Of a stretch of DNA of 21,063 bases, positions 5,505-20,440 are shown piece after piece. The first letter of the stretch is position 1. Every line of letters begins with the position of its first letter. Made by a program: the position numbers and the translations under genes. The notes under the pieces are model-generated. The model saw only the letters and a program-made list of their open reading frames with translations. It had not been told where the DNA came from and did no database searches. This stretch comes from a virus. The stretch is from the IMG/VR virus record IMGVR_UViG_3300013127_000788, positions 1 through 21,063 of that record; one strand, given 5' to 3'.

Positions 5505-6962
5505 ATGAATTCTCAATTGATGGATGTTGGCGCCGAAAGAGCGCTGCTTGCTGGATTATTTACTTATGGCATTGAGGTTTATGTTGAAATATGCGATATA
5601 ATTGATCATAGTACATTTGGATATTATAATAACCAAGTAATATATAAATGTATTGAAAAGATTCTACAAAATGAAGCCGAAATAGATTTACCATCTCTAT
5701 TATCGGCGGCACAACAGCTTGGCTTTTATGAATCAATAAGCACTAAGCAAGAATTAGAATATATAAATTCTTTGATAGAATTTCCAATCAAAAAAGAAAA
5801 CGTAATTAACTTTGCTCTTCAGATAAAGAAGTTTGAATTTGCAAGAAACATCAAAAAACTCGCCAACAAAATCTCAAAAGATGTTGATGAAATAAACGGC
5901 GATGAAAGTATAGATGAAATCTTATCATTAATTGAAAATCCAATAATGGATTTTCTCAAACAAGACAATATCTCCGATAAACCAGAAAAGATTGGGCAAG
6001 ATATTGATGAATATTTTAACTTTTTAATAGAAAATAAATGCGATCAAATAGGCATTCCGACAGGCTATCCTCGATACGATGCAGCTATTGGCGGTGGATT
6101 AAGAAAAAAGTGTGTCGATTTAGTTTCTGCAAGGCCAAAAGTCGGTAAAAGTGTTTTTGCCGATAACGTAGCTTTGAACGTATCGAATCTTGGCATCCCG
6201 GTATTAATGCTAGATACAGAGATGTCAAAAGAGGATCATCTTAATAGAATCATTTCAAATCTTAGTAACGTCCCAATAAATGAAATAGCGACTGGAAAGT
6301 TTTCAGATGATCAAGAAAAGATTCTTGCCGTTAAATCTTCAATAGAGAAAATAAAAAACATACCATATACATATGTTAGCGTTGCAGGATCTCCGTTTGA
6401 AAATGTCTTAAATACAATAAAAAGATGGATAATACACACCGTAGGTCAAGACGAAAACGGAAGAACAAATCAATGTCTTGTAATATACGATTATTTAAAA
6501 TTAATGTCTTCAAATTCAATAACAAATAATATACAAGAATATCAAGCTCTTGGCTTTCAGATAACAGCTCTTCATAACCTCGCCGTAAAATACGACTTTC
6601 CATGCTTATCATTTGTTCAATTAAACAGAGATGGAATAACAAAAGAAAGTACAGACGCCGTAAGCGGATCTGATAGGCTTATTTGGTTGTGTACATCATT
6701 CTCAATTTTTAAACTAAAATCAGCAGAAGAGCTTGCTGAAGATGGGCCAAACACAGGTAATAGAAAATTAGTTCCAATAGTTTCTCGTCATGGACCAGGA
6801 ATGGAAGATGGTAATTATATTAATATGAATATGACCGGAAATAAAGCGAGGTTACAAGAATTAAGAACACGCGACGAATTTAAAGTGTTGAAAAATAATA
6901 ATGATACTGGTATTGAAGGTTCAGATCTTCCATTTGATATTGAGGAAAATGAGGAAAATTAA
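5505..6962 (+). CDS. dnaB: DnaB-like replicative helicase
   Basis: A 485-residue hexameric replicative helicase of the DnaB family. The N-terminal domain (about 1-150) opens with a DnaB-like segment (AERALLAGLF) for primase interaction. A linker precedes the RecA-type motor, which has Walker A ARPKVGKS (209-216), an acidic motif LDTEMS (236-241), Walker B LVIYDYLKLM (325-334) and the motif-4 strand SFVQLNR (369-375). DnaB Walker A loops usually read ARPxMGKT, so this is a close variant. It unwinds DNA ahead of the polymerase on the lagging-strand template. ATG 5505 follows the previous stop at once. The stop TAA shares its last base with the next ATG. Confidence 0.93.
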   Translation: MNSQLMDVGAERALLAGLFTYGIEVYVEICDIIDHSTFGYYNNQVIYKCIEKILQNEAEIDLPSLLSAAQQLGFYESISTKQELEYINSLIEFPIKKENVINFALQIKKFEFARNIKKLANKISKDVDEINGDESIDEILSLIENPIMDFLKQDNISDKPEKIGQDIDEYFNFLIENKCDQIGIPTGYPRYDAAIGGGLRKKCVDLVSARPKVGKSVFADNVALNVSNLGIPVLMLDTEMSKEDHLNRIISNLSNVPINEIATGKFSDDQEKILAVKSSIEKIKNIPYTYVSVAGSPFENVLNTIKRWIIHTVGQDENGRTNQCLVIYDYLKLMSSNSITNNIQEYQALGFQITALHNLAVKYDFPCLSFVQLNRDGITKESTDAVSGSDRLIWLCTSFSIFKLKSAEELAEDGPNTGNRKLVPIVSRHGPGMEDGNYINMNMTGNKARLQELRTRDEFKVLKNNNDTGIEGSDLPFDIEENEEN

Positions 6963-7123
6963 TGGGCGTATATTCACTAATACTTGCTATTATACTATAT
7001 ATAACTATTGCATTGCAAAATTTGATTGACAAAGACTATCCACATGTGTTAATATGGCTATCATACGCAGCTGCAAATGCTGGATTTCTGTGGTATGAAA
7101 TCCTTAAAAGGAATATGCTATGA
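6962..7123 (+). CDS. 53-residue two-span membrane protein
   Basis: A short open frame precisely fills the interval between the helicase and primase genes. It starts at ATG 6962 (TAATG overlap with the helicase stop, GAGG at 6951-6954) and its stop TGA overlaps the primase start (ATGA). The protein has a hydrophobic N-terminal segment (VYSLILAIILYITIAL) and a second one (VLIWLSYAAANAGFLW) separated by a short charged loop (NLIDKDYPH), with a Lys/Arg-containing tail. This is the pattern of a small two-pass inner-membrane hairpin. The perfect junctions and the ribosome site argue that it is real. Function unknown; it might tether replication to the membrane or affect the host envelope. Confidence 0.7.
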   Translation: MGVYSLILAIILYITIALQNLIDKDYPHVLIWLSYAAANAGFLWYEILKRNML

Positions 7124-8160
7124 CTACACAGACAAAAAAAAGAATTGATTTAAATAAAATTAGAATTATTATATATAATAATATTGAATTGCTATTAGAC
7201 AATTTAAATATAAATTATGAAAACTCTGGATCAAATTATTTCTCAACATGCCCTATACATGGCGGGAGCGACAACAAGAAAGCTTTATTAATTTCAACAG
7301 AAAAAAAATATTGGAGATGCTGGACGAGGTCGTGTCACGAGACCCACGGAAAAGATATTTTCGATTTCATAAGAGCTACACTCTGTAATAAAAATGGAAA
7401 AGACTTTACATTTTTAGATACTTTAAAATTTGTGTGCAAAATCTATAATATAGATTATAAAAATATAGAAAAAGAAAAAACAGTCGATTATCCAGAAAAT
7501 GACTTTGTAGAAATAATAAAGATTTTTTCGAAAAAAGAAAATAACCTAGAGAACAGTAAAGTCAAGGAGATACAGTCTAATAATCAAACATCAAAATATT
7601 TTGAAGGCCGTGGATTTAAACGTGAGACATTAAAATATTTTAATATTATTGATTTATCTGACGAAGATCATGAAATGAAAAATAGATCTATTATCCCAAT
7701 TCACGATGAGCATTCAGACTTGGTAGCGTATATTGGCCGCTCAACAAAATGTTATATTACACCAAAGTTCATCTTCACAAAAGGTTTTAAAAAATCTAAC
7801 TATTTATATAATTATCACAGAGCTTTAGATTCAATATGTAAAAAATCATGCATATTTATTTTAGAGGGTCAGAGTGATGTATGGAGAATGTATGAAGCTG
7901 GAGTAGAAAATTGCGTAAGTATTTTTGGAAGAGAAATATCTGATGTACAAAAACGTAAAATATTAAAATTGAATATTACAACAATGGTTGTTTTAACGGA
8001 TAACGATCAGGCCGGTAGAGAATCAAAATTTAAAATACAGCGTCAATTCAGCAGAATGCTAAATTTAAAATTTCCAATATTAAATAAAAAAGATGTCGGC
8101 GACATGACCGTAGAACAAGTAACAGATACAATTCTTTCACAGGTAAAAGGTTTATATTGA
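7120..8160 (+). CDS. DnaG-type DNA primase
   Basis: A 346-residue primase that lays down RNA primers. The N-terminal zinc-binding domain has C44-x2-H47 and C67-x4-C72 (CPIHGG and CWTRSC), a phage-like version of the CHC2 finger that reads the priming site. After a linker of about 80 residues, the TOPRIM catalytic domain shows the acidic pair in FILEGQSD (Glu249) and the metal-binding VLTDNDQAGR (Asp294, Asp296). It is shorter than bacterial DnaG (about 580) because it lacks the C-terminal helicase-binding domain. The start ATG 7120 has AAGGAA 6 bases upstream. Adjacency to the DnaB-like helicase supports a working helicase-primase pair. Confidence 0.9.
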   Translation: MTTQTKKRIDLNKIRIIIYNNIELLLDNLNINYENSGSNYFSTCPIHGGSDNKKALLISTEKKYWRCWTRSCHETHGKDIFDFIRATLCNKNGKDFTFLDTLKFVCKIYNIDYKNIEKEKTVDYPENDFVEIIKIFSKKENNLENSKVKEIQSNNQTSKYFEGRGFKRETLKYFNIIDLSDEDHEMKNRSIIPIHDEHSDLVAYIGRSTKCYITPKFIFTKGFKKSNYLYNYHRALDSICKKSCIFILEGQSDVWRMYEAGVENCVSIFGREISDVQKRKILKLNITTMVVLTDNDQAGRESKFKIQRQFSRMLNLKFPILNKKDVGDMTVEQVTDTILSQVKGLY

Positions 8161-11555: not shown

Positions 11556-13217
11556 ATGAATTGGTTTCCGCTTTGCAACTATACACATTACAGTCTATTG
11601 AAAGGGTTTTCTCAACCAAAAGAACTTGCAAAAAAGTGTAAAAATAATGATTATAAAGCTTGCGGGATAGCGGATTATAAATCTATATCTGGAGCAGTAT
11701 CATTTTATTCTGCGTGTATTGAGAACAATATCAAGCCGATAATAGGCTGCTCATTTGATAATTTTTCACTATTTGCTAAAAATAAAAACGGTTGGTTTGA
11801 CTTAATAGAGCTTGTTTCATCGCTTGACGAAAACGATAATTTAGATACTAAGTTTCTAAATTTAATTTGTTCAAAGGGAAACTTAATCTGTGTAGCAAAA
11901 AATGAATTAGCATCTCCAGTTTCTAAAGAGGATTTTTATCTGAAAACAGATTGCTTTTACGACATTTACTATGTAAATCAGGAAGACGCACAATTGCATA
12001 GAATTTTACTATGTTCAAATATGAAGACAACTTTACCAAAGGTATACAAAAAGATAAAGTCTGGCGAAAATATTGAAAACTCAAAATTCTTTGAAAACTC
12101 AGATTTTTACTTAAAAGATAATTTAGAAATTTCTGAGTATATAATAACAGATATAGAATCAGGCAATATCTTTAATGATATATTCAATAAGTGCGAAGAA
12201 TATAGTATATTTGAAAAACCAAAATTACCAAGATTTCCAACTCCAAAGAACGAATCAGAAGAAGAATATCTTACAGAGTTATGTAGAAATGGTTGGCGTA
12301 ACCTCTTAGCTGGAACAGAAAAATCAAATTCTGAAGATAAGAAAAAAACTTATGGAAATAGATTTAAAAAAGAGTTTGAAGTTATAAAAGAGGCGAATCT
12401 CTTTGGGTATTTTCTTATTGTTTGGGATATAATAAAGTATGCAAATGATAACGGCTGGATGACCGGCCCCGGTAGAGGGTCAGCATCCGGATGTTTGATT
12501 TCATATTTACTTGGAATAACCCACGTTGACCCAATTGAATATGATTTATTGTTTGAGAGGTTTTATAATTCTGGAAGGAATACAGATGATCATATATCTC
12601 TCCCAGATATAGATATGGATGTTCCAGCAGACAAACGTGACGAGATTATATCTTACCTAAAAGATAAGTATGGGCAAGATAATGTATGTCAAATGTTAAC
12701 CTTTGGAAGACTTCAAGGTCGAAGCGCTATAAAAGAAGTGTTGCGAGTAAATGAAGCTTGTGGATTTACTGAAATGAATGAGATTACCAAGTATATCCCC
12801 GACGAAGCAGCTATTTCAGATCAACTTCAGGAAATGGACGAAGATGAAAAATCGATAATAAAATGGGCATTAATAAATGAATCGGAATATTTAAAAGATT
12901 TTTGTTTTATAAATAAAAATGGCGACTTAGAAGGTACATATGCAGAATATTTTAAACAGGCGATAAATATAGAGGGTACTTTCAAAACTAAGGGAAAACA
13001 TGCGGCTGGCGTTGTTATATCGGCAAACGAACTTTATAAAGTGTGTCCTATGGTAAACCAAAAAAATGGAAAGGAAAAAATAGCCGGATTAGAAATGACT
13101 GATCTAGAACTTCTTGGCCATGTGAAATTTGATGTTCTAGGATTGTCTTTATTGCAAAAATTAATGTTTATTGATAATATAAAAAAAGGTGAAACTGAAT
13201 GTCTAACAGGGATATAA
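11556..13217 (+). CDS. dnaE: DNA polymerase III alpha (DnaE-type), N-terminal half: PHP, palm, thumb
   Basis: A 553-residue N-terminal half of a C-family polymerase. Residues 1-230 are the PHP region; the thumb/palm follow with GPGRGSASG, then PDIDMDV holding catalytic Asp351 and Asp353. Asp526 in KFDVLGL is the third catalytic carboxylate (E. coli D401, D403, D555). The frame ends 27 residues later, exactly where the palm gives way to the fingers in E. coli alpha. The fingers and all later domains are encoded by a separate gene at 13886. The PHP metal site is degenerate: the usual HLHVHTEYS reads as PLCNYTHYS. ATG 11556 has GAGG upstream. The stop overlaps the exonuclease gene by 19 bases. 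Confidence 0.93.
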   Translation: MNWFPLCNYTHYSLLKGFSQPKELAKKCKNNDYKACGIADYKSISGAVSFYSACIENNIKPIIGCSFDNFSLFAKNKNGWFDLIELVSSLDENDNLDTKFLNLICSKGNLICVAKNELASPVSKEDFYLKTDCFYDIYYVNQEDAQLHRILLCSNMKTTLPKVYKKIKSGENIENSKFFENSDFYLKDNLEISEYIITDIESGNIFNDIFNKCEEYSIFEKPKLPRFPTPKNESEEEYLTELCRNGWRNLLAGTEKSNSEDKKKTYGNRFKKEFEVIKEANLFGYFLIVWDIIKYANDNGWMTGPGRGSASGCLISYLLGITHVDPIEYDLLFERFYNSGRNTDDHISLPDIDMDVPADKRDEIISYLKDKYGQDNVCQMLTFGRLQGRSAIKEVLRVNEACGFTEMNEITKYIPDEAAISDQLQEMDEDEKSIIKWALINESEYLKDFCFINKNGDLEGTYAEYFKQAINIEGTFKTKGKHAAGVVISANELYKVCPMVNQKNGKEKIAGLEMTDLELLGHVKFDVLGLSLLQKLMFIDNIKKGETECLTGI

Positions 13218-13876
13218 TTGTGTTCGATTTTGAGACTTGTTCGCGTAATCCATATAAAACACAACCAACACAATTAGCTGCGATAGCTCTTGATGGAAGA
13301 AATTTTAAATTAAAAGGCGAATTTAATAGCGAAATAAAACCAATACTTGATGATAATAAAGCAATTGAACTGGGTCTTGATCCAGTTGAGGATGAAGCTT
13401 TAAACATAACAAGAAAAACTAGAGATAAATTAGCAGACGCGCCACAATTAAAAACAGTATGGAATAAATTTACAAATTTTGTAAATCAATACAATTGGAA
13501 CAATACTACCTTTTTTGCGCCGATACCAGCTGGATTTAATATACTTGGATTCGATATGATAATAATTAATAGGCTTTGTAAGGAATACGGGCCGTACGAT
13601 GAAAAATCTCAAAGACAAAAACTGTTTCATCAAATATATAAAATCGACGTAATGGATAATGTATTTATGTGGACAGAGGGTGATCCATCAGTAAAATCAA
13701 TAAGCATGGACTCATTAAGAGAAAGGATGGGTATATCAAAAGATAATGCTCACGACGCTCTTCAGGACGTAAAAGATACTGCTAATATAATGATAAAATT
13801 TATGAAAACCCACAGGGCGGTTTATCGTAATTTAAAAATTGAAAAAGCTTTTGCAGATGGCAATTATTATATATAG
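13199..13876 (+). CDS. DnaQ-like DEDDh 3'-5' exonuclease inside the split polymerase locus
   Basis: A complete 225-residue DnaQ-superfamily exonuclease. ExoI is FDFET (Asp10, Glu12), ExoII is AGFNILGFD with Asp119, and ExoIII is HDALQD (His185, Asp190), making it a DEDDh enzyme with all catalytic residues present. It would remove mismatched 3' ends and act as the proofreading subunit. It starts at ATG 13199 with AGGTGA about 7 bases upstream, inside the last 19 bases of the polymerase N-half. It ends at TAG 13874, nine bases before the C-half start. It lies in the same frame as the C-half. Insertion between two halves of one polymerase makes a physical partnership with that polymerase very likely. 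Confidence 0.93.
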   Translation: MSNRDIIVFDFETCSRNPYKTQPTQLAAIALDGRNFKLKGEFNSEIKPILDDNKAIELGLDPVEDEALNITRKTRDKLADAPQLKTVWNKFTNFVNQYNWNNTTFFAPIPAGFNILGFDMIIINRLCKEYGPYDEKSQRQKLFHQIYKIDVMDNVFMWTEGDPSVKSISMDSLRERMGISKDNAHDALQDVKDTANIMIKFMKTHRAVYRNLKIEKAFADGNYYI

Positions 13877-13885
13877 GATATTAAG

Positions 13886-16234
13886 GTGATTGATTTTAAT
13901 GATAAAAAAACTTGGGAACTTTTTAAGGATGGAAAAACAAAGGGCATTTTTCAACTAGAAAGTAACCTTGGAAGATCGTGGTCTAAGAAACTAGCGCCCG
14001 ACAATATTGAACATCTATCCGCCCTAATAGCAATTCTGAGACCGGGTTGTGTTTCTGGTGATACTTTGGTTCACGTTGGCTATGATCAACATAAAGATGG
14101 AAGAACAAGGTATAGAAGAACTAAACTATCTCAATTATGTAAAAATAAGAAATACTATAAAAAACTTTCATCTCTAAATGAAAACCAGCTTTCTGTATAC
14201 CAAAATAATATAGAAGATATATTCTATAATGGAAAAAAGGAATGCTATAAAGTTAAAATAGAAAAATACTCAAGAGTAAGGGTAGATAGTCATCCAAAAT
14301 GGTATGACTTAGAATGTACGTTGGATCATAAATTATTAACTCCGAATGGATGGGTTGAATTACAGAACCTTAATGTTGGTGATAGAATAGCTGTAGTAAA
14401 AAGAACATACGAAAGAAAACTAAAAGAGTTTATTGCAAATAGACATCATCCAGAAGCTCCTAAGATTAGGAACGTTAAAGGTTCTTACTATTTTAGTGAA
14501 ATATGTTACAAAAACTACTTAAAAGAATGTGTAATTTGTGGTTGGAATTCTACTACGCTAGACGTACACCATTTAAACGGCGGTAGATATGAAAATAATA
14601 CCCCAGACAATTTAGCCTATCTATGTCCTAATCATCATAGAGAGTTAGATAAGGGATTGATTACAAACGAACATATTATTCTCTGTAGAGAAAAAAATAA
14701 ATTACCACAAAGTAATGATATTGAGTGGGTTACATATATCGGCAAAGAGTCTGTAGGGATAAAAGATGTATACGATATATCAATGACTGGCCCAAATCAT
14801 AACTTTGTTGCTGGCGGTTTTATAGTACATAACTGTCTTAAGTCGGTAATAGACGGAAAATCGCTTACTCAGCATTATGTTGATAGAAAAAATGGCAAAG
14901 AAGAAGTAACTTATATTCACGAATCTTTAAGGCCGATCCTAGAGAAGACTTATGGTATATTATGTTATCAGGAACAGGCAATGCAAATTGTCCAGCAGCT
15001 TGCTGGATTTAATTTAACAGAAGCTGATGATTTAAGAAAAGCTATTGGTAAAAAGAAAGCCGACCTAATGACAAAAATTAAAAGTAAGTTTATTGAGGGT
15101 TGCAAGAAAACCGGGATTGTAGATGAAGAAACTGCAAAAGAAATTTTTGGTTGGATCGAGAAGTCATCGAGATATTCGTTTAATAAATCACATTCAGTAT
15201 CATATGCCGTAAATAGCTATATTAGTGCTTGGTATAAAGCTCACTTTACAAAAGAATTCTTTTTATCATATTTATATCATGCAAATGACAAACAAGATCC
15301 GCACCAAGAAATATACGAACTTGTATCAGAAGCTAAACTATTTGACATAGAAATAAAGATACCAAAGATAGGATTAAACATAGAGAAATTTTCTATCATT
15401 GATCAGAATATTTATTTTGGAATAAAGGATATAAAATCCCTAAGCGGAGTAATTGGGGATAAGGTATTGCAATCAATAGAAGAAACAGAAAAAGAATTAA
15501 ACAAGAGAAGCAACTTTTTCTCATGGATCGAAATATTAATTTATTTATCATCAAAGATAAATTCAGCATCTTTTAAAGCTTTATGCTGTATAGGTTTTTT
15601 CTCAAACAAGCAAACACTGGTCTCAAGAAACAGGGCGCTATATGAATATCTAATTTTTGAACAATTAACTAAATCCGAATTAACTTGGGTTATAAATAAT
15701 TATCCAGAAAAAAGATGGGAATCATTAATTGATTGCCTAGCAGATTTGGCTCCAACCAAAAAGGAGGGTGGCGGAACAAGCAGGGTTGATAGAAGTCAGT
15801 TAATTAAAAACGAAATTCACTTCTTGCAGAATCCACCTTATTCACTAGAGGATCAGTCGTCATGGATAATAGATCAAGAAAAAAAATTTCTAGGTTGTCC
15901 AATATCATTATCAAAAGTTGAAGCTATAGATACATCTTCCGCAAATACAACATGCAAAGAAATAATGAATGGAAAAACTGGCAAAAATATATGCATAGTT
16001 GCTAATATAAATAGAGTGGCATCATGTAAAGTTAAGAAAGGTAAAACGGCGGGAAAAACTATGTCTTTCTTGACACTTGAAGACGAAACGTGCTTCATTG
16101 ATAACGCCGTGGTGTTTCCAGAAGTTAGAGATAAATATGAATTCATATTATATGAAGGCAATAATCTTTTATTTTGCGGCGAAGTTTCAAAAAAAGATAA
16201 TTCGTTTATTATTGAAAAAATTCATGAAATTTGA
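13886..16234 (+). CDS. dnaE: DNA polymerase III alpha (DnaE-type), C-terminal half with intein
   Basis: A 782-residue precursor; about 520 residues remain after splicing. The first 54 residues match the start of the DnaE fingers (KGIFQLES, then LIAILRPG). The intein occupies 55-316. The host protein resumes with CLKSVIDG, then YGILCYQEQ, the conserved FNKSHS (432-437), a helix-hairpin-helix-like stretch, and an OB fold in roughly the last 110 residues (SFLTLEDETCFIDNAVVFP). Palm catalytic aspartates are absent because they are in the upstream gene, so this half cannot polymerise alone. Start is GTG 13886, with AGGA 7 bases before it; part of that site is the exonuclease TAG stop. No obvious Qxx(L/M)xF-type clamp-binding motif is seen. 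Confidence 0.93.
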   Translation: MIDFNDKKTWELFKDGKTKGIFQLESNLGRSWSKKLAPDNIEHLSALIAILRPGCVSGDTLVHVGYDQHKDGRTRYRRTKLSQLCKNKKYYKKLSSLNENQLSVYQNNIEDIFYNGKKECYKVKIEKYSRVRVDSHPKWYDLECTLDHKLLTPNGWVELQNLNVGDRIAVVKRTYERKLKEFIANRHHPEAPKIRNVKGSYYFSEICYKNYLKECVICGWNSTTLDVHHLNGGRYENNTPDNLAYLCPNHHRELDKGLITNEHIILCREKNKLPQSNDIEWVTYIGKESVGIKDVYDISMTGPNHNFVAGGFIVHNCLKSVIDGKSLTQHYVDRKNGKEEVTYIHESLRPILEKTYGILCYQEQAMQIVQQLAGFNLTEADDLRKAIGKKKADLMTKIKSKFIEGCKKTGIVDEETAKEIFGWIEKSSRYSFNKSHSVSYAVNSYISAWYKAHFTKEFFLSYLYHANDKQDPHQEIYELVSEAKLFDIEIKIPKIGLNIEKFSIIDQNIYFGIKDIKSLSGVIGDKVLQSIEETEKELNKRSNFFSWIEILIYLSSKINSASFKALCCIGFFSNKQTLVSRNRALYEYLIFEQLTKSELTWVINNYPEKRWESLIDCLADLAPTKKEGGGTSRVDRSQLIKNEIHFLQNPPYSLEDQSSWIIDQEKKFLGCPISLSKVEAIDTSSANTTCKEIMNGKTGKNICIVANINRVASCKVKKGKTAGKTMSFLTLEDETCFIDNAVVFPEVRDKYEFILYEGNNLLFCGEVSKKDNSFIIEKIHEI
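14048..14833 (+). mobile_element. Intein with HNH homing endonuclease
   Basis: An in-frame 262-residue intein within the polymerase C-half, placed between RPG and CLKS. It starts CVSGDTLVHV (block A, Cys1). Block B has T-x-x-H in TLDH (intein residues 91-94). Block F is VYDISMTGPNHNF, and block G ends GGFIVHN with the penultimate His and terminal Asn. The +1 residue is Cys, so a complete splicing set is present. In the middle (intein residues about 160-200) is an HNH nuclease: C-x2-C in CVICGW, the HH pair in DVHHLNGG, Asn in PDNL, and CPNHH. This is an HNH rather than a LAGLIDADG endonuclease, and it looks intact and able to drive homing into intein-free alleles. Confidence 0.92.
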
Positions 16235-16263: not shown

Positions 16264-16282
16264 AATATTATTTTGATAGATT

Positions 16283-16287
16283 GGAGG
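16283..16287 (+). promoter_or_regulatory. Ribosome binding site fixing the ssb start
   Basis: GGAGG lies five bases before TTG 16293, which fixes the SSB start there. An in-frame TTG at 16281 is a base or two before this site and would use it inside the coding region, so it is rejected. Confidence 0.7.
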
Positions 16288-16292
16288 ATTCT

Positions 16293-16598
16293 TTGAATAT
16301 TTGCAACTTTAGTGGCTTTTTAGTTGATTATCCAAAATTACAAAATGTAGACGGTGTCAGCTTTTTAAGCTTTACACTCGTGGTTTATACATATAGAAAA
16401 ACTAAGAGTGGAGAAAAAAATAGAATACCAACATATATAAAACTTGAAAGCTGGCACACTGGGGCAGAAACCATAGCCAAATTTGCGACAAAAGGATCAA
16501 AGTTAACGGTGACAGCATCAGCAAAAAATTATGATGACGGAAATATTGTGTTTAGAGTGAATGAATTTGACTTTTGCTGTTTAGAGGATGAAGAATGA
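16293..16598 (+). CDS. ssb: Single-stranded DNA-binding protein
   Basis: A 101-residue OB-fold SSB. The order of blocks follows bacterial SSB: NICNFSGFLVDYP at the start (compare NKVILVGNLGxDP), VSFLSFTLVVYTYRK, a short basic loop, YIKLESWHTGAETIAKF (the conserved W-x-x-x-x-x-x-(A/E) block), KGSKLTVTASAKN and a last strand FRVNEFDF. The tail ends LEDEE, an acidic tip reminiscent of the partner-binding tail of bacterial SSB. Unlike E. coli SSB (178 residues) there is no long linker. It begins at TTG 16293 with GGAGG five bases upstream. Its stop overlaps the next start (ATGA). Position next to the polymerase fits lagging-strand work. Confidence 0.85.
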   Translation: MNICNFSGFLVDYPKLQNVDGVSFLSFTLVVYTYRKTKSGEKNRIPTYIKLESWHTGAETIAKFATKGSKLTVTASAKNYDDGNIVFRVNEFDFCCLEDEE

Positions 16599-18262
16599 AT
16601 AATAAGAAAAGAGTGTTATTTTGCAGCGAAGCGACATTTTTGAATACCGGCTATGCTACATATACTAGAGAAATATTAAATTATCTTTACAGTACTGGAA
16701 AATATGAACTTGCCGAAATGGCTTCATATGGAGAAAGAAATGATCCACGGGCCGCAAATATTCCATGGAAATATTATGGTGTTTGTCCAAACACAACTTG
16801 CGAACCAAAAGCTAGTAAAGAAGAATTAGATGTATATCAAAGCAAAGGGACAAATCAATTTGGTGAATTTTTATTTGAGCATGTATGCTTAGATTTTTTA
16901 CCAGATGTTGTTTGTGACATACGCGATTTTTGGATGCTTGATTTTATAGAACGGTCTCCGTTTAGACCATATTTTAAAATGGCAATTATGCCAACCGTAG
17001 ACGCAGCCCCACAGGCGCGTCAATGGATTGCTACATATCAATCTGCTGACGCCTGTTTTACATATTCAGACTGGGCTGGTGATGTTTTACGCGAACAATC
17101 TGGCGGTAAAATAAATTATCTTGGAAGCGCCCCACCATCAGCGCATCCAGCTTACCAGCCCGTAGAAGACAAGGATGCTCATAAAATAAAATATGGTATA
17201 GATCCATCATATGGCGTAATCGGAACCGTAATGAGAAATCAACGCCGCAAGCTTTATCCGGATTTATTTAAAGCGTTTAGAACATTCTTAGACTCTGTAG
17301 ATAGCAAAAAATATTATTTATACTGCCATACCTCATATCCAGATCTTGGCTGGGATATTCCGGAATTATTACAGGAAAGCGAGCTAAGTTCACATGTATT
17401 ATTTACATACATTTGTAATGAAACAAATAAACCATTTCCATCCTTTTTTAAGGGGCCAATAATTCAATCTCCATATACGGGAAAATGGGGAGCAACGCTT
17501 TCCAACGTAAAAAAGGGCGCCTCGTATGAAGATCTTTCTAATATAATGAATTTATTTGATTTATATGTTCAATATGCAAATTCGGAGGGTTTTGGTCTAC
17601 CCCAAGTAGAAGCTGCTGCATGTGGAGTTCCGGTAATGGCAACAGATTATTCAGCAATGGAGAGCGTGGTAAGACAGTTGCAAGGATGGCCAATACCACC
17701 AAAAGCATTGTACAAAGAATTAGAAACTGGATGCATGAGGGCTGTTCCAAATAACGATAAAGCAGCGAATCTTTTTTACAATTTTTTTAAAAGCTACACA
17801 AAAGAAGAGCGTTTGGCTCTTGGAAAGAGAACAAGAGAAAATTTTGAGAAACATTTTCAGTGGCATTTGAGTGGAAAAAAGTGGGAAGATTATTTTGATA
17901 GTTTTGAAAAATTACCAATGCAAGAGACTTGGGCCTCACAACCAAGAATAAGAAATTCACAACCCAAGCCAGAGAACATAAATGGCGTCCCATTTACAGA
18001 TTTAGCTAGATGGCTCATAACAAATGTTTTATGTGAACCCGAAAAAATTGGTTCTTTTTTCGAAGCTAGACTCACAAGAGATTTGATGTATAGAAGCGCC
18101 ACGGGATCAACAGGAGGTATGTATTTTAACGAATCTTCTGCGGCTTTTGATGGAGTTAATAGTCGGCAAGAATTTAACTTTGACATAGCTTATGAGCAAA
18201 TGAAAAGTCTTTGTGCTAGAAGAAATCAATGGGAACAAATGCGAGTTAACAAAATACGATGA
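16595..18262 (+). CDS. GT-B glycosyltransferase (GT4-like), large
   Basis: A 555-residue GT-B glycosyltransferase. The N-terminal domain begins with a Rossmann-like strand (RVLFCSEATFLNTGYATYTRE). The second domain carries the GT4 donor-site motif E331-x7-E339 in EGFGLPQVE, followed by AAACGVPVMATDYSAMESVV. It would transfer a sugar from a nucleotide donor. The C-terminal region beyond about residue 460 has no domain I recognise. It is coupled to ssb by ATGA and is followed by two further glycosyltransferases. Acceptor could be a virion protein, a phage-modified base or host surface glycan; sequence does not decide. Confidence 0.87.
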   Translation: MNNKKRVLFCSEATFLNTGYATYTREILNYLYSTGKYELAEMASYGERNDPRAANIPWKYYGVCPNTTCEPKASKEELDVYQSKGTNQFGEFLFEHVCLDFLPDVVCDIRDFWMLDFIERSPFRPYFKMAIMPTVDAAPQARQWIATYQSADACFTYSDWAGDVLREQSGGKINYLGSAPPSAHPAYQPVEDKDAHKIKYGIDPSYGVIGTVMRNQRRKLYPDLFKAFRTFLDSVDSKKYYLYCHTSYPDLGWDIPELLQESELSSHVLFTYICNETNKPFPSFFKGPIIQSPYTGKWGATLSNVKKGASYEDLSNIMNLFDLYVQYANSEGFGLPQVEAAACGVPVMATDYSAMESVVRQLQGWPIPPKALYKELETGCMRAVPNNDKAANLFYNFFKSYTKEERLALGKRTRENFEKHFQWHLSGKKWEDYFDSFEKLPMQETWASQPRIRNSQPKPENINGVPFTDLARWLITNVLCEPEKIGSFFEARLTRDLMYRSATGSTGGMYFNESSAAFDGVNSRQEFNFDIAYEQMKSLCARRNQWEQMRVNKIR

Positions 18263-18294
18263 TAAGTTTTATTGTTCAAGGTCCATTGGTTTAA
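18259..18294 (+). pseudogene. Relic of a WavE-like glycosyltransferase start
   Basis: ATG 18259 overlaps the upstream TGA (ATGA), exactly like a normal operon junction, but reads only 11 codons (MISFIVQGPLV) before TAA. The ten residues after Met resemble the conserved N-terminus of WavE-type glycosyltransferases, which begin ISxIVQGPI/L. This suggests that most of a glycosyltransferase gene was deleted, leaving its coupled start. A 10-residue resemblance may be chance; no further homology is visible in the remaining 27 bases of the gap. Confidence 0.4.
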
Positions 18295-18321
18295 ATATTT
18301 AAGTCAATTTAAGGAATAAAA

Positions 18322-19452
18322 ATGAAAGTTCTTTACATAGGTCATTACAAAGAAAAAAGCGGCTGGGCGCAAGCCGCAAAGGATTATATTCTTGCACTTG
18401 ATAGTGTTGGTGTTGATGTTGTTTGCCGAAACGTAACGCTTACGCAAGATAATCCGCAAGTTGATAAGCGATTGCTTAAGCTCGAAGCAAAAGACGCTAC
18501 CGGATGCGACTATTGTATTCAGCATGTTTTGCCGCACCATCTTGTGGGAACATCTGAGTTTAAAAAGAATATAGCAATACTTGAATCTGAAACAACCACA
18601 ATGAAGCATTTACCCTGGTTCAATCATCTTCAATTGATGGACGAAATTTGGGTTCCAAATAAAGATTCTAAAAAATATCTAGAGCAGGATAAAATAAATA
18701 AAACCGTTAAAGTCATTCCTCATTGTTGTGACATAGAAAAATATACTAAAGCTTATGAAAAAATAAATATACCAGAAATAGATGGCAAATATAAATTTTA
18801 TTATATTGGTGATCTTAATGATAGAAAAAATATTAGGTCAATCATTAGATGCTTTCATAGCGAATTTAGTGAACCAGAACCAGTTGCTTTAATATTAAAA
18901 GTTAAAAAGTTTGGATTATCAAAAGATCAATGTAAAAAATATGTTGATTCTATATTAACAGAAGAGAAGCAAAAGTTAAGAATGTATAACAATAATAACA
19001 ACTACATAAAAGATTGTGTTATTTGTGATGATATAACCGACGATCAAATTTATTCATTACATCAATATTGCGATTGTTTTATATGCCCATCTCACGGAGA
19101 AGCTTGGTCAATACCATCCTTTGATTCTATGGCTTTTGGTAAAACGCCAATATGTAGCAATTTCGGTGGGCCGAAAGATTTTATAGATGAAAACAATTTA
19201 AATACCGGGTATTGCGCAAACGGCGTTTTTTCAGTTTGTCAGTGTTTAGACGCCGCCTTCCCAGATATTTTTACAGGAAGAGAATTCTGGTTTCAACCCT
19301 GCGAAAAAGAAATAAGAGGGATGATGAGATTTTATTATGAAAATAAAAATAATGAAAATGATAAACATTACAAAATTGATGGATTAACAAGAGCAAAATA
19401 TTTTTCATATGAAAAAATCGCAAGTCTAATTAAGGAGACTCTTAGTGAGTAG
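18322..19452 (+). CDS. GT-B glycosyltransferase, 376 aa
   Basis: A 376-residue GT-B protein. The N-terminal Rossmann strand is MKVLYIGHYKEKSGWAQAAK. The central TVKVIPHCCDIEKYTK followed by KFYYIGDLNDRKNI marks the start of the donor-binding domain. The GT4 motif is a variant, E260-x7-D268 in GEAWSIPSFD, then MAFGKTPICSNFGGPKDFI. It has an unusually high number of cysteines in the C-terminal domain. Start ATG 18322 has AAGGA upstream after a 59-base gap. The stop overlaps the GTG of the next gene by 8 bases. Likely acts in the same glycosylation pathway as its neighbours; acceptor unknown. Confidence 0.85.
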   Translation: MKVLYIGHYKEKSGWAQAAKDYILALDSVGVDVVCRNVTLTQDNPQVDKRLLKLEAKDATGCDYCIQHVLPHHLVGTSEFKKNIAILESETTTMKHLPWFNHLQLMDEIWVPNKDSKKYLEQDKINKTVKVIPHCCDIEKYTKAYEKINIPEIDGKYKFYYIGDLNDRKNIRSIIRCFHSEFSEPEPVALILKVKKFGLSKDQCKKYVDSILTEEKQKLRMYNNNNNYIKDCVICDDITDDQIYSLHQYCDCFICPSHGEAWSIPSFDSMAFGKTPICSNFGGPKDFIDENNLNTGYCANGVFSVCQCLDAAFPDIFTGREFWFQPCEKEIRGMMRFYYENKNNENDKHYKIDGLTRAKYFSYEKIASLIKETLSE

Positions 19453-20440
19453 TCAAACACTTTCTATATTAAATAAATCTTTTGGTAAAAAGCAAAAGTA
19501 TAATATACTTACATTTGATACGCATGAAAGATATCAAACACAGCTATCTAAAACCGGACATAGTTTTTATTCATTTAGATACGAAGGGTGTAAAGAATGG
19601 AATGAAGAGTACGCAGAAATACCAAAGAATTATTATATTTTACCAAAAAATACTTTATATCATGGAATAAATTTTGATTTTATTTTATCGCAAAGTAAGT
19701 TTGGTCAATTTCAAGTATCAAAGAAAATTCAAAATATTTTAAACTTACCAATAATTTCTTTAGAACACACTCTTCCAATACCAAGTTGGCCAAACCAACA
19801 AACCGAGGCGTTTCGCCAAATGTCTGGCGACATAAATATTTTTATTTCTGAATATTCACACAAACAATGGAAAATGAGCGGAAAGGTTATACATCATTCA
19901 GTTGATATAGATTTATTTAGCCCAAGAATAAAAGAAGGAATTATAATCCCAAAAAATGACCATGTACTTTCTGTTGTTAACGATTATGTTAATCGCGATT
20001 ACTGTTGTAATTTTAAGGGGTGGCAGCGAATAACAAATGGTATAAAAACAAAACTCATTGGAAATACACCGGGATTATCTAAACCAGCAGCATCGATACA
20101 AGATCTTGTGGAAGAATATAGAAACGCTAAGGTATTTTTAAACACCTCAACAATTAGTCCAGTTCCAACTTCTTTACTTGAAGCCATGTCTTGCGGGTGC
20201 GCGGTAGTTAGCACAGCTACATGTATGATTCCAGATATAATAAATAATGGAGTCAATGGGTTCATATCAAATAATGAAGAAGAGCTTAGAGATTATATAG
20301 ATTTATTATTAAAATCAGATGAACTTAGGAATAGATTAGGGTTAGAGGCAAGAAAAACGGTGGTTGAAAGATTTTCAGAACAATATTTTATAAATAATTG
20401 GAATACTATATTTGATAATATATATGGAGTTAATATATGA
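19445..20440 (+). CDS. GT-B glycosyltransferase, 331 aa
   Basis: A 331-residue GT-B protein starting at GTG 19445, with AAGGAG upstream. The first 170 residues form a divergent acceptor domain (KYNILTFDTHERYQTQLSK). The donor-binding half contains SPVPTSLLEAMSCGCAVV with Glu246, corresponding to the second glutamate of the GT4 motif; the first is replaced by Ser. This is followed by the conserved IPDIINNGVNGFISNNEEEL. It is shorter than typical GT4 enzymes (about 380). It overlaps the following gene by 4 bases (ATGA). Substrate unknown. Confidence 0.83.
   Translation: MSSQTLSILNKSFGKKQKYNILTFDTHERYQTQLSKTGHSFYSFRYEGCKEWNEEYAEIPKNYYILPKNTLYHGINFDFILSQSKFGQFQVSKKIQNILNLPIISLEHTLPIPSWPNQQTEAFRQMSGDINIFISEYSHKQWKMSGKVIHHSVDIDLFSPRIKEGIIIPKNDHVLSVVNDYVNRDYCCNFKGWQRITNGIKTKLIGNTPGLSKPAASIQDLVEEYRNAKVFLNTSTISPVPTSLLEAMSCGCAVVSTATCMIPDIINNGVNGFISNNEEELRDYIDLLLKSDELRNRLGLEARKTVVERFSEQYFINNWNTIFDNIYGVNI

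What the first reader, a model, noticed from the sequence alone, without database searches (positions are those of the whole stretch)
11556..16234. Replicative polymerase split between palm and fingers by its own proofreading exonuclease gene
The DnaE-type alpha subunit is encoded as two proteins. The first holds all three catalytic aspartates (351, 353, 526) and stops 27 residues after KFDVLGL. The second resumes at the start of the fingers. Between them, a full DEDDh exonuclease is encoded with only a 19-base overlap on one side and a 9-base gap on the other. Split polymerases are known: cyanobacterial DnaE, joined by a split intein, and some T4-like phage gene 43s interrupted by a homing endonuclease. 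PolC has an exonuclease domain inserted in its PHP domain. A break at the palm-fingers border occupied by a separate proofreading gene, with no split intein, is different from all of these as far as I know. It implies a three-subunit core that assembles without covalent joining.
Basis: partly seen in the sequence, partly recalled or inferred. Interest (0 to 1): 0.88.

Follow-up and report, generated by a model that had tools for sequence, protein, structure and literature searches.

The report
Phage DNA polymerase split around proofreader
A large uncultured group of mostly marine phages makes its only recognisable DNA-copying enzyme as two separate proteins, split between palm and fingers, with the gene for the proofreading exonuclease sitting between the two halves; it is a real, long-conserved arrangement, though splitting this enzyme (even at this spot) has happened in other phages.

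Summary
Confirmed, and much broader than one window. The N half (PHP-palm-thumb, 553 aa), a DEDDh exonuclease (225 aa) and the C half (fingers to OB fold) form a collinear cassette in 161 of 161 IMG/VR or MAG loci long enough to show it (136 distinct exo sequences). The break falls between E. coli alpha residues ~573 and ~590. All active-site residues are invariant and dN/dS is 0.01-0.08 in all three genes, so this is no sequencing error. No split intein or intron lies at the break, reading frames between genes vary, and foreign genes sit at one or both junctions in many relatives (in one, the C gene lies ~9.5 kb away). The halves must therefore act as separate polypeptides, presumably assembling non-covalently with the exo as a three-subunit core. 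No second recognisable DNA polymerase was found in twelve 97-174 kb relatives. What appears new is an ancient, lineage-wide fission with the proofreader gene lodged in it. Assembly and activity are inferred, not shown.

The parts
11556..13217 (+). N half of DnaE-type Pol III alpha: degenerate PHP domain, palm with D351/D353/D526, thumb (553 aa)
   Evidence: Pfam PF07733 2.6e-70, PHP 5.8e-16; AF2 model pLDDT 87.8, best PDB E. coli Pol III alpha TMq 0.75; catalytic Asp invariant
13199..13876 (+). DEDDh 3'-5' exonuclease (225 aa), D10 E12 D119 H185 D190; Shine-Dalgarno-like AAGGTG just upstream, inside the end of the N gene
   Evidence: Pfam RNase_T 2.3e-13, PHROG_192 exo subunit 2.3e-22; active-site residues invariant in 38 sequences; sequence
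13886..16234 (+). C half of Pol III alpha: fingers to OB fold (520 aa after removal of the intein); GTG start
   Evidence: Pfam PF17657 2.8e-47; profile aligns to E. coli alpha from residue 590; AF2 model of relative L002 matches full-length DnaE including the OB fold
14048..14833 (+). Cis intein with HNH endonuclease, inserted at RPG|C of the fingers; 262 aa
   Evidence: Pfam Intein_splicing 9e-14, HNH_2 2.9e-4; boundaries from relatives that lack it
16281..16598 (+). Downstream single-strand-binding protein, same strand (replication context)
   Evidence: Pfam SSB 2.1e-6
5505..6962 (+). DnaB-like replicative helicase (replication context)
   Evidence: Pfam DnaB_C 6.3e-22
7120..8160 (+). DnaG-like primase (replication context)
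   Evidence: Pfam Toprim_4 2e-10, DNAG_N 2.5e-7

Best explanation
The window carries the replicative polymerase of an uncultured tailed-phage lineage as a three-gene cassette: alpha-N (PHP-palm-thumb), a DEDDh proofreading exonuclease, alpha-C (fingers to OB fold). Gene fission at the palm/fingers linker happened once in the ancestor of this lineage and has been kept under strong purifying selection. The two halves stay separate polypeptides that dock without covalent joining to rebuild a C-family polymerase; the exo acts as the epsilon-like proofreader, probably docking on alpha-N. Overlapping stop/start codons suggest that translation of the three is coupled so that they are made together. 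In the window the C half must first splice out its own HNH intein. Shown: anatomy, conservation, lack of splicing signals at the break, separability of the genes. Inferred: the complex, its activity, the docking site of the exo.
For: Same order and break in 161/161 loci, 136 distinct exo sequences and in deeper relatives at 40-60% identity. Polymerase and exo active sites invariant; dN/dS N 0.04-0.08, exo 0.01-0.04, C 0.03-0.07. Break maps between E. coli 573 and 590; each half models as the expected part of DnaE. One PF07733 and no family A or B polymerase or beta clamp detected in twelve or thirteen records per search, mostly 97-174 kb contigs. Frames between N/E and E/C differ among loci; 8 clade-1 loci carry extra DNA, mostly foreign ORFs, at both junctions; in one relative alpha-C lies ~9.5 kb downstream. 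No Rfam intron. PHP metal ligands lost in the two main clades but largely intact in split relatives L200 and L237, fitting hand-over of proofreading to the exo. Split clade monophyletic, UFBoot 100. Precedents for unspliced function: split phage-25 gp43 halves co-purify with polymerase activity, and Aeh1 split NrdA is active (PMC2988022).
Against: No biochemical evidence of a complex or of activity; no cultured member. AF2 models are of single chains, so the N-C and exo interfaces were not tested. No clamp-binding motif was identified in the exo by eye, and no phage clamp was found, so processivity is unexplained. Exo as proofreader rests on family, gene position and PHP decay. The large contigs are fragments by IMG/VR class, so another polymerase could be missed.
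Confidence: 0.82

Rival explanations
1. The halves are joined after synthesis or at RNA level by a hidden mechanism: split intein, trans-acting intron, frameshift or readthrough through the exo gene.
For: Split inteins do occur elsewhere in this same polymerase in relatives (GPGRG|S in L014, L213, L245; FNK|SH in L014, L022). In the window the exo and C half happen to share a frame.
Against: At the palm/fingers break the N tail and C head are only a few residues to ~30 aa, with no Hint motifs. No Rfam group I/II intron in window, L014 or L022. N/E and E/C frame relations vary across loci. Foreign genes lie at the junctions, and in one relative C is 9.5 kb away.
Confidence: 0.05
2. The split is an artefact or the polymerase is a decaying pseudogene.
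For: Single-window view; many loci are metagenome assemblies.
Against: 161/161 loci, strong purifying selection in all three genes, invariant catalytic residues.
Confidence: 0.01
3. Origin by a mobile element: a homing endonuclease or split-intein element first broke dnaE at the linker; the element was later lost or replaced by the exo gene, and the gap kept attracting mobile genes. (Compatible with the best explanation; it concerns how the split arose.)
For: Endonuclease VII/HNH-type ORFs at the junctions in many relatives; split inteins with free-standing endonuclease-like ORFs in the same genes; Bacteroidota-phage dnaE is split with tails and heads resembling decayed split-intein halves (hhalign E 3.4e-4, probability 38%); precedent mobE/nrdA and seg43/gene 43 (PMC2988022).
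Against: No remnant of such an element at the palm/fingers break in any locus; endonucleases could have arrived after the split; in Fowlmouth-type phages the same fission has only a 4-nt overlap and no insert. Simple fission by stop/start mutation cannot be excluded.
Confidence: 0.4
4. The exonuclease merely happens to lie between the halves and is not the proofreading partner (for example it degrades host DNA).
For: No interaction data; other genes also sit at the junctions.
Against: Exo is the only gene always present between the halves (161/161), is the most conserved of the three (dN/dS 0.01-0.04), and PHP catalytic ligands are lost in the main clades. A DEDDh exo next to dnaE is also seen in Pbunavirus PS44.
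Confidence: 0.1

Closest known systems
Mycobacterium phages Fowlmouth, MrMiyagi and Cuke: dnaE in two adjacent genes
   Same: C-family polymerase split without intein at the same boundary (Fowlmouth gp85 ends at family-HMM position 567, gp86 starts at 575; window N 569, C 577), overlapping genes
   Different: No exo between the halves; closest relative Indlulamithi has an unsplit gene, so a separate and young event; no dedicated description found
Split minimal Pol III alpha of group 2.2 jumbo phages (Iyer et al. 2021, PMC7824862)
   Same: Phage Pol III alpha in two stand-alone proteins, proposed to rebuild an enzyme
   Different: Split between NTP-binding and Mg/template-binding subdomains, distant genes, lacks the other alpha domains, accompanied by a family B polymerase
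Bacteroidota-phage dnaE (Cellulophaga phi13:1/phiST, Tenacibaculum Larrie, gut contigs)
   Same: dnaE in two adjacent genes
   Different: Break inside the palm between GRGS and DxD motifs; exo elsewhere (downstream in gut contigs); tails resemble decayed split-intein halves
Split gp43 of T4-like phages 25/44RR and split NrdA of Aeh1
   Same: Essential phage enzyme in pieces, reassembling without splicing (PMC2988022)
   Different: Family B polymerase or reductase; interrupted by a homing endonuclease or untranslated insert, not by the enzyme's own proofreading subunit
Cyanobacterial split DnaE with split intein
   Same: C-family polymerase in two genes (own knowledge and PMC3919608)
   Different: Joined by protein trans-splicing; break elsewhere in the fingers, near the FNKSH motif (own knowledge)
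E. coli Pol III core alpha-epsilon(-theta)
   Same: Separate DEDDh exo partner of an alpha subunit with an inactive PHP
   Different: alpha is one chain; the exo gene does not lie within the alpha gene
Rhodococcus phage Weasels2 gp101/gp102
   Same: Pol III alpha in two overlapping genes
   Different: Break between PHP and palm

Membership tests
C-family (DnaE-type) DNA polymerase | Three catalytic aspartates in a Pol III palm | tested here: met
   D351, D353, D526 invariant in 39 sequences; PF07733 2.6e-70
C-family (DnaE-type) DNA polymerase | Fingers and OB domain present | tested here: met
   PF17657; structure match over the whole C half
C-family (DnaE-type) DNA polymerase | Polymerase activity | not testable with these tools
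   needs biochemistry
Split-intein DnaE (cyanobacterial type) | Intein halves at the break | tested here: not met
   short tails and heads, no Hint match at the break
Genes-in-pieces enzyme (Aeh1 NrdA / phage 25 gp43 type) | Essential gene split into separate reading frames that reassemble without splicing | tested here: inconclusive
   separate frames and lack of splicing signals met; reassembly not testable here
Genes-in-pieces enzyme (Aeh1 NrdA / phage 25 gp43 type) | Mobile endonuclease or untranslated insert at the break | tested here: inconclusive
   present at the junctions in many relatives, absent in the window
PolC | Exo domain inserted in PHP within one chain | tested here: not met
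   exo is a separate ORF at another position; best structure matches are DnaE
DnaQ-like DEDDh exonuclease (epsilon-like) | D-x-E, D, H-x4-D active site | tested here: met
   D10, E12, D119, H185, D190 invariant
DnaQ-like DEDDh exonuclease (epsilon-like) | Binding to the alpha PHP domain and to the clamp | not testable with these tools
   no convincing clamp motif seen by eye; PHP docking inferred
Split minimal Pol III alpha of jumbo phages | Break between NTP- and Mg-binding subdomains, with a family B polymerase | tested here: not met
   break after the palm; no PF00136 in 13 records

The most novel reading that the evidence does not exclude
An ancient, obligately three-subunit replicase core in which the exonuclease is not just a neighbour but a structural partner that helps hold the palm and fingers halves together, so that polymerase assembly and proofreading depend on each other.
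Probability: 0.15. Interest if true: 0.85.

Novelty: new variant of a known kind. Interest (0 to 1): 0.62.

Why it matters
Replicative polymerases are usually thought to need the palm and fingers in one chain. Here a whole, widely sampled phage lineage appears to replicate genomes of 100-170 kb or more with the two in separate proteins and no other recognisable polymerase. It gives natural, optimised split points for C-family polymerases, a test of how proofreading couples to an alpha subunit whose PHP domain is dead, and, with the same fission in cultured mycobacteriophages Fowlmouth and Cuke, a tractable way to ask how an enzyme in pieces stays active and why such splits persist.

Tried and rejected
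Sequencing or assembly error: rejected by 161/161 loci. Split intein at the break: none. Intron: no Rfam hit. Programmed frameshift or readthrough: frames not conserved. T4-like identity: no Gp23 match, but the control also gave none, so uninformative. PDB by sequence for the exo gave only weak DEDDh matches. N-half single-sequence scan of viral contigs found nothing. MT836709 (L083), the best 'phage' hit by identity, turned out to be bacterial DNA. Dassa 2009 fractured-genes paper not held. A major-capsid candidate had no isolate match.
Full report
OBSERVATION. Pfam finds PHP and the Pol III alpha catalytic domain in the first, an RNase_T/DEDDh exonuclease in the second and the Pol III fingers domain in the third. 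D351, D353 and D526 are there. Two corrections. The first protein ends 23 residues after KFDVLGL.

NOT AN ARTEFACT. An exo query against IMG/VR gave 317 relatives; 80 loci were read. A divergent MAG relative (L087, 47-60% identity) opened a second set of 80. In all 161 loci that reach far enough the order is N half, exo, C half with the break at the same place; the set holds 136 distinct exo sequences. A further scan added some 55 loci of the same clade, some of them contigs fetched before, plus deeper relatives. Synonymous change far exceeds non-synonymous in all three genes (dN/dS 0.04-0.08, 0.01-0.04 and 0.03-0.07). Catalytic residues of polymerase and exo are invariant.

WHERE THE BREAK IS. 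Profiles of the halves align to E. coli alpha up to residue ~573 and from ~590, in the linker that follows the strand with the third catalytic Asp. AlphaFold2 models of the N half (window) and C half (relative L002) are confident as single chains (pLDDT 87.8 and 85.1) and match DnaE in the PDB (N: TM 0.75 to E. coli alpha; C: alignment over its whole length including the OB fold, TM about 0.5).

SEPARATE POLYPEPTIDES. In clade 1 the exo start usually overlaps the N stop by 7-19 nt and, where nothing is inserted, the C start lies within about 10 nt of the exo stop; in clade 2 a ~75-aa ORF sits between N and exo. Frames between neighbouring genes vary among loci, so frameshift or readthrough is not a conserved device. 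Rfam finds no intron in the window, L014 or L022. N tails and C heads are too short for intein halves. In many clade-1 loci additional ORFs lie at one junction, and in eight loci extra DNA lies at both: endonuclease VII and HNH families, FkbM methyltransferases, glycosyltransferase-like proteins. In a deep relative (L190) the C gene lies about 9.5 kb downstream of the exo. These facts fit separate proteins that assemble without joining.

ONLY RECOGNISABLE POLYMERASE. Twelve large contigs (97-174 kb) each have one PF07733 match. Searches of twelve to thirteen records found no family B polymerase, family A polymerase or beta clamp. All are classed as linear, often fragments, so absence is not proof. 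The phage is a tailed phage with a terminase, a portal-like protein and a head protease; its terminase is only ~26% identical to any isolate.

EXO AND PHP. PHP metal ligands are mostly gone in clades 1 and 2 but largely intact in the split relatives L200 and L237. This fits a scenario in which proofreading passed wholly to the exo. Docking of the exo on the N half is inferred from E. coli alpha-epsilon.

ORIGIN. A tree of N+C (906 columns) puts all palm/fingers-split sequences of this lineage in one clade (support 100), apart from unsplit phage and bacterial DnaE and from Bacteroidota-phage DnaE. The exo of unsplit relatives lies elsewhere (MA9V-3; L184); in Pbunavirus PS44 an exo gene sits directly upstream of unsplit dnaE. 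Mobile elements clearly target this gene: a cis intein in the window, split inteins with separate endonuclease-like ORFs at GPGRG|S (L014, L245; L213 with the intein halves but a short gap) and FNK|SH (L014, L022). A mobile-element origin of the fission is plausible but no remnant is left at the break.

WHAT IS KNOWN. Published: split minimal Pol III alpha in group 2.2 jumbo phages (PMC7824862); split gp43 and NrdA that work in pieces (PMC2988022); [quoted passage not shown] break site not checked). Deposited annotations show mycobacteriophages Fowlmouth, MrMiyagi and Cuke with dnaE in two overlapping genes; Fowlmouth was mapped to the same boundary as here (HMM 567/575 against 569/577), MrMiyagi and Cuke follow by homology, and the nearest relative Indlulamithi is unsplit. 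Other breaks occur in Cellulophaga/Tenacibaculum/gut phages and Weasels2. In the papers searched no description was found of this lineage or of a proofreading gene lodged between the halves; subscription papers are not covered.

VERDICT. New variant of a known kind, with good experimental handles.

Noticed in passing
L186, L188, L176, L177, L189 (IMG/VR, probably gut) and L082/L257 (Cellulophaga phi13:1, Tenacibaculum Larrie): dnaE is split between the GRGS and DxD motifs; the tail of gene 1 and head of gene 2 resemble decayed split-intein (Hint) halves without the catalytic His block or terminal Asn. hhalign against split inteins E 3.4e-4, probability 38%; they may serve as docking parts.
   Followed up: partly
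L014, L022, L213, L245: Split inteins at GPGRG|S and FNK|SH of the same polymerase, in L014, L022 and L245 with a free-standing endonuclease-like ORF between the halves; the FNK|SH site lies next to the cyanobacterial split DnaE intein site (own knowledge). In L014 both polymerase halves are themselves interrupted.
   Followed up: partly
MH834613 (L259), MT776806, MG757156 (L262): Mycobacteriophages Fowlmouth, MrMiyagi and Cuke: dnaE split at the palm/fingers boundary in cultured phages; relative Indlulamithi (L263) unsplit.
   Followed up: yes
L190 / L251: Deep relative whose C-half gene lies ~9.5 kb from the exo, separated by cupin and sugar-related genes; its C half starts with a CGC-containing extension also seen in L200.
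   Followed up: partly
L034, L045, L062, L063, L067, L072 (N/exo junction) and L026, L027 (exo/C junction): A conserved ~160-aa protein (MIEVKVTDYMRVKAR...), no Pfam match, looks nuclease-like by eye and occurs at either junction of the split polymerase.
   Followed up: no
L021 against L024, L078 against L080: N and C halves differ in divergence between close relatives, suggesting recombination that swaps one half.
   Followed up: no
window 16595-20440: Three large ORFs in a row downstream of the SSB gene that look like glycosyltransferases by eye.
   Followed up: no
MT836709 (L083): A record labelled 'Bacteriophage sp.' from human faeces appears to be a bacterial chromosome piece (phosphoglucosamine mutase, serine dehydratase, dnaE with an intact PHP).
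   Followed up: partly
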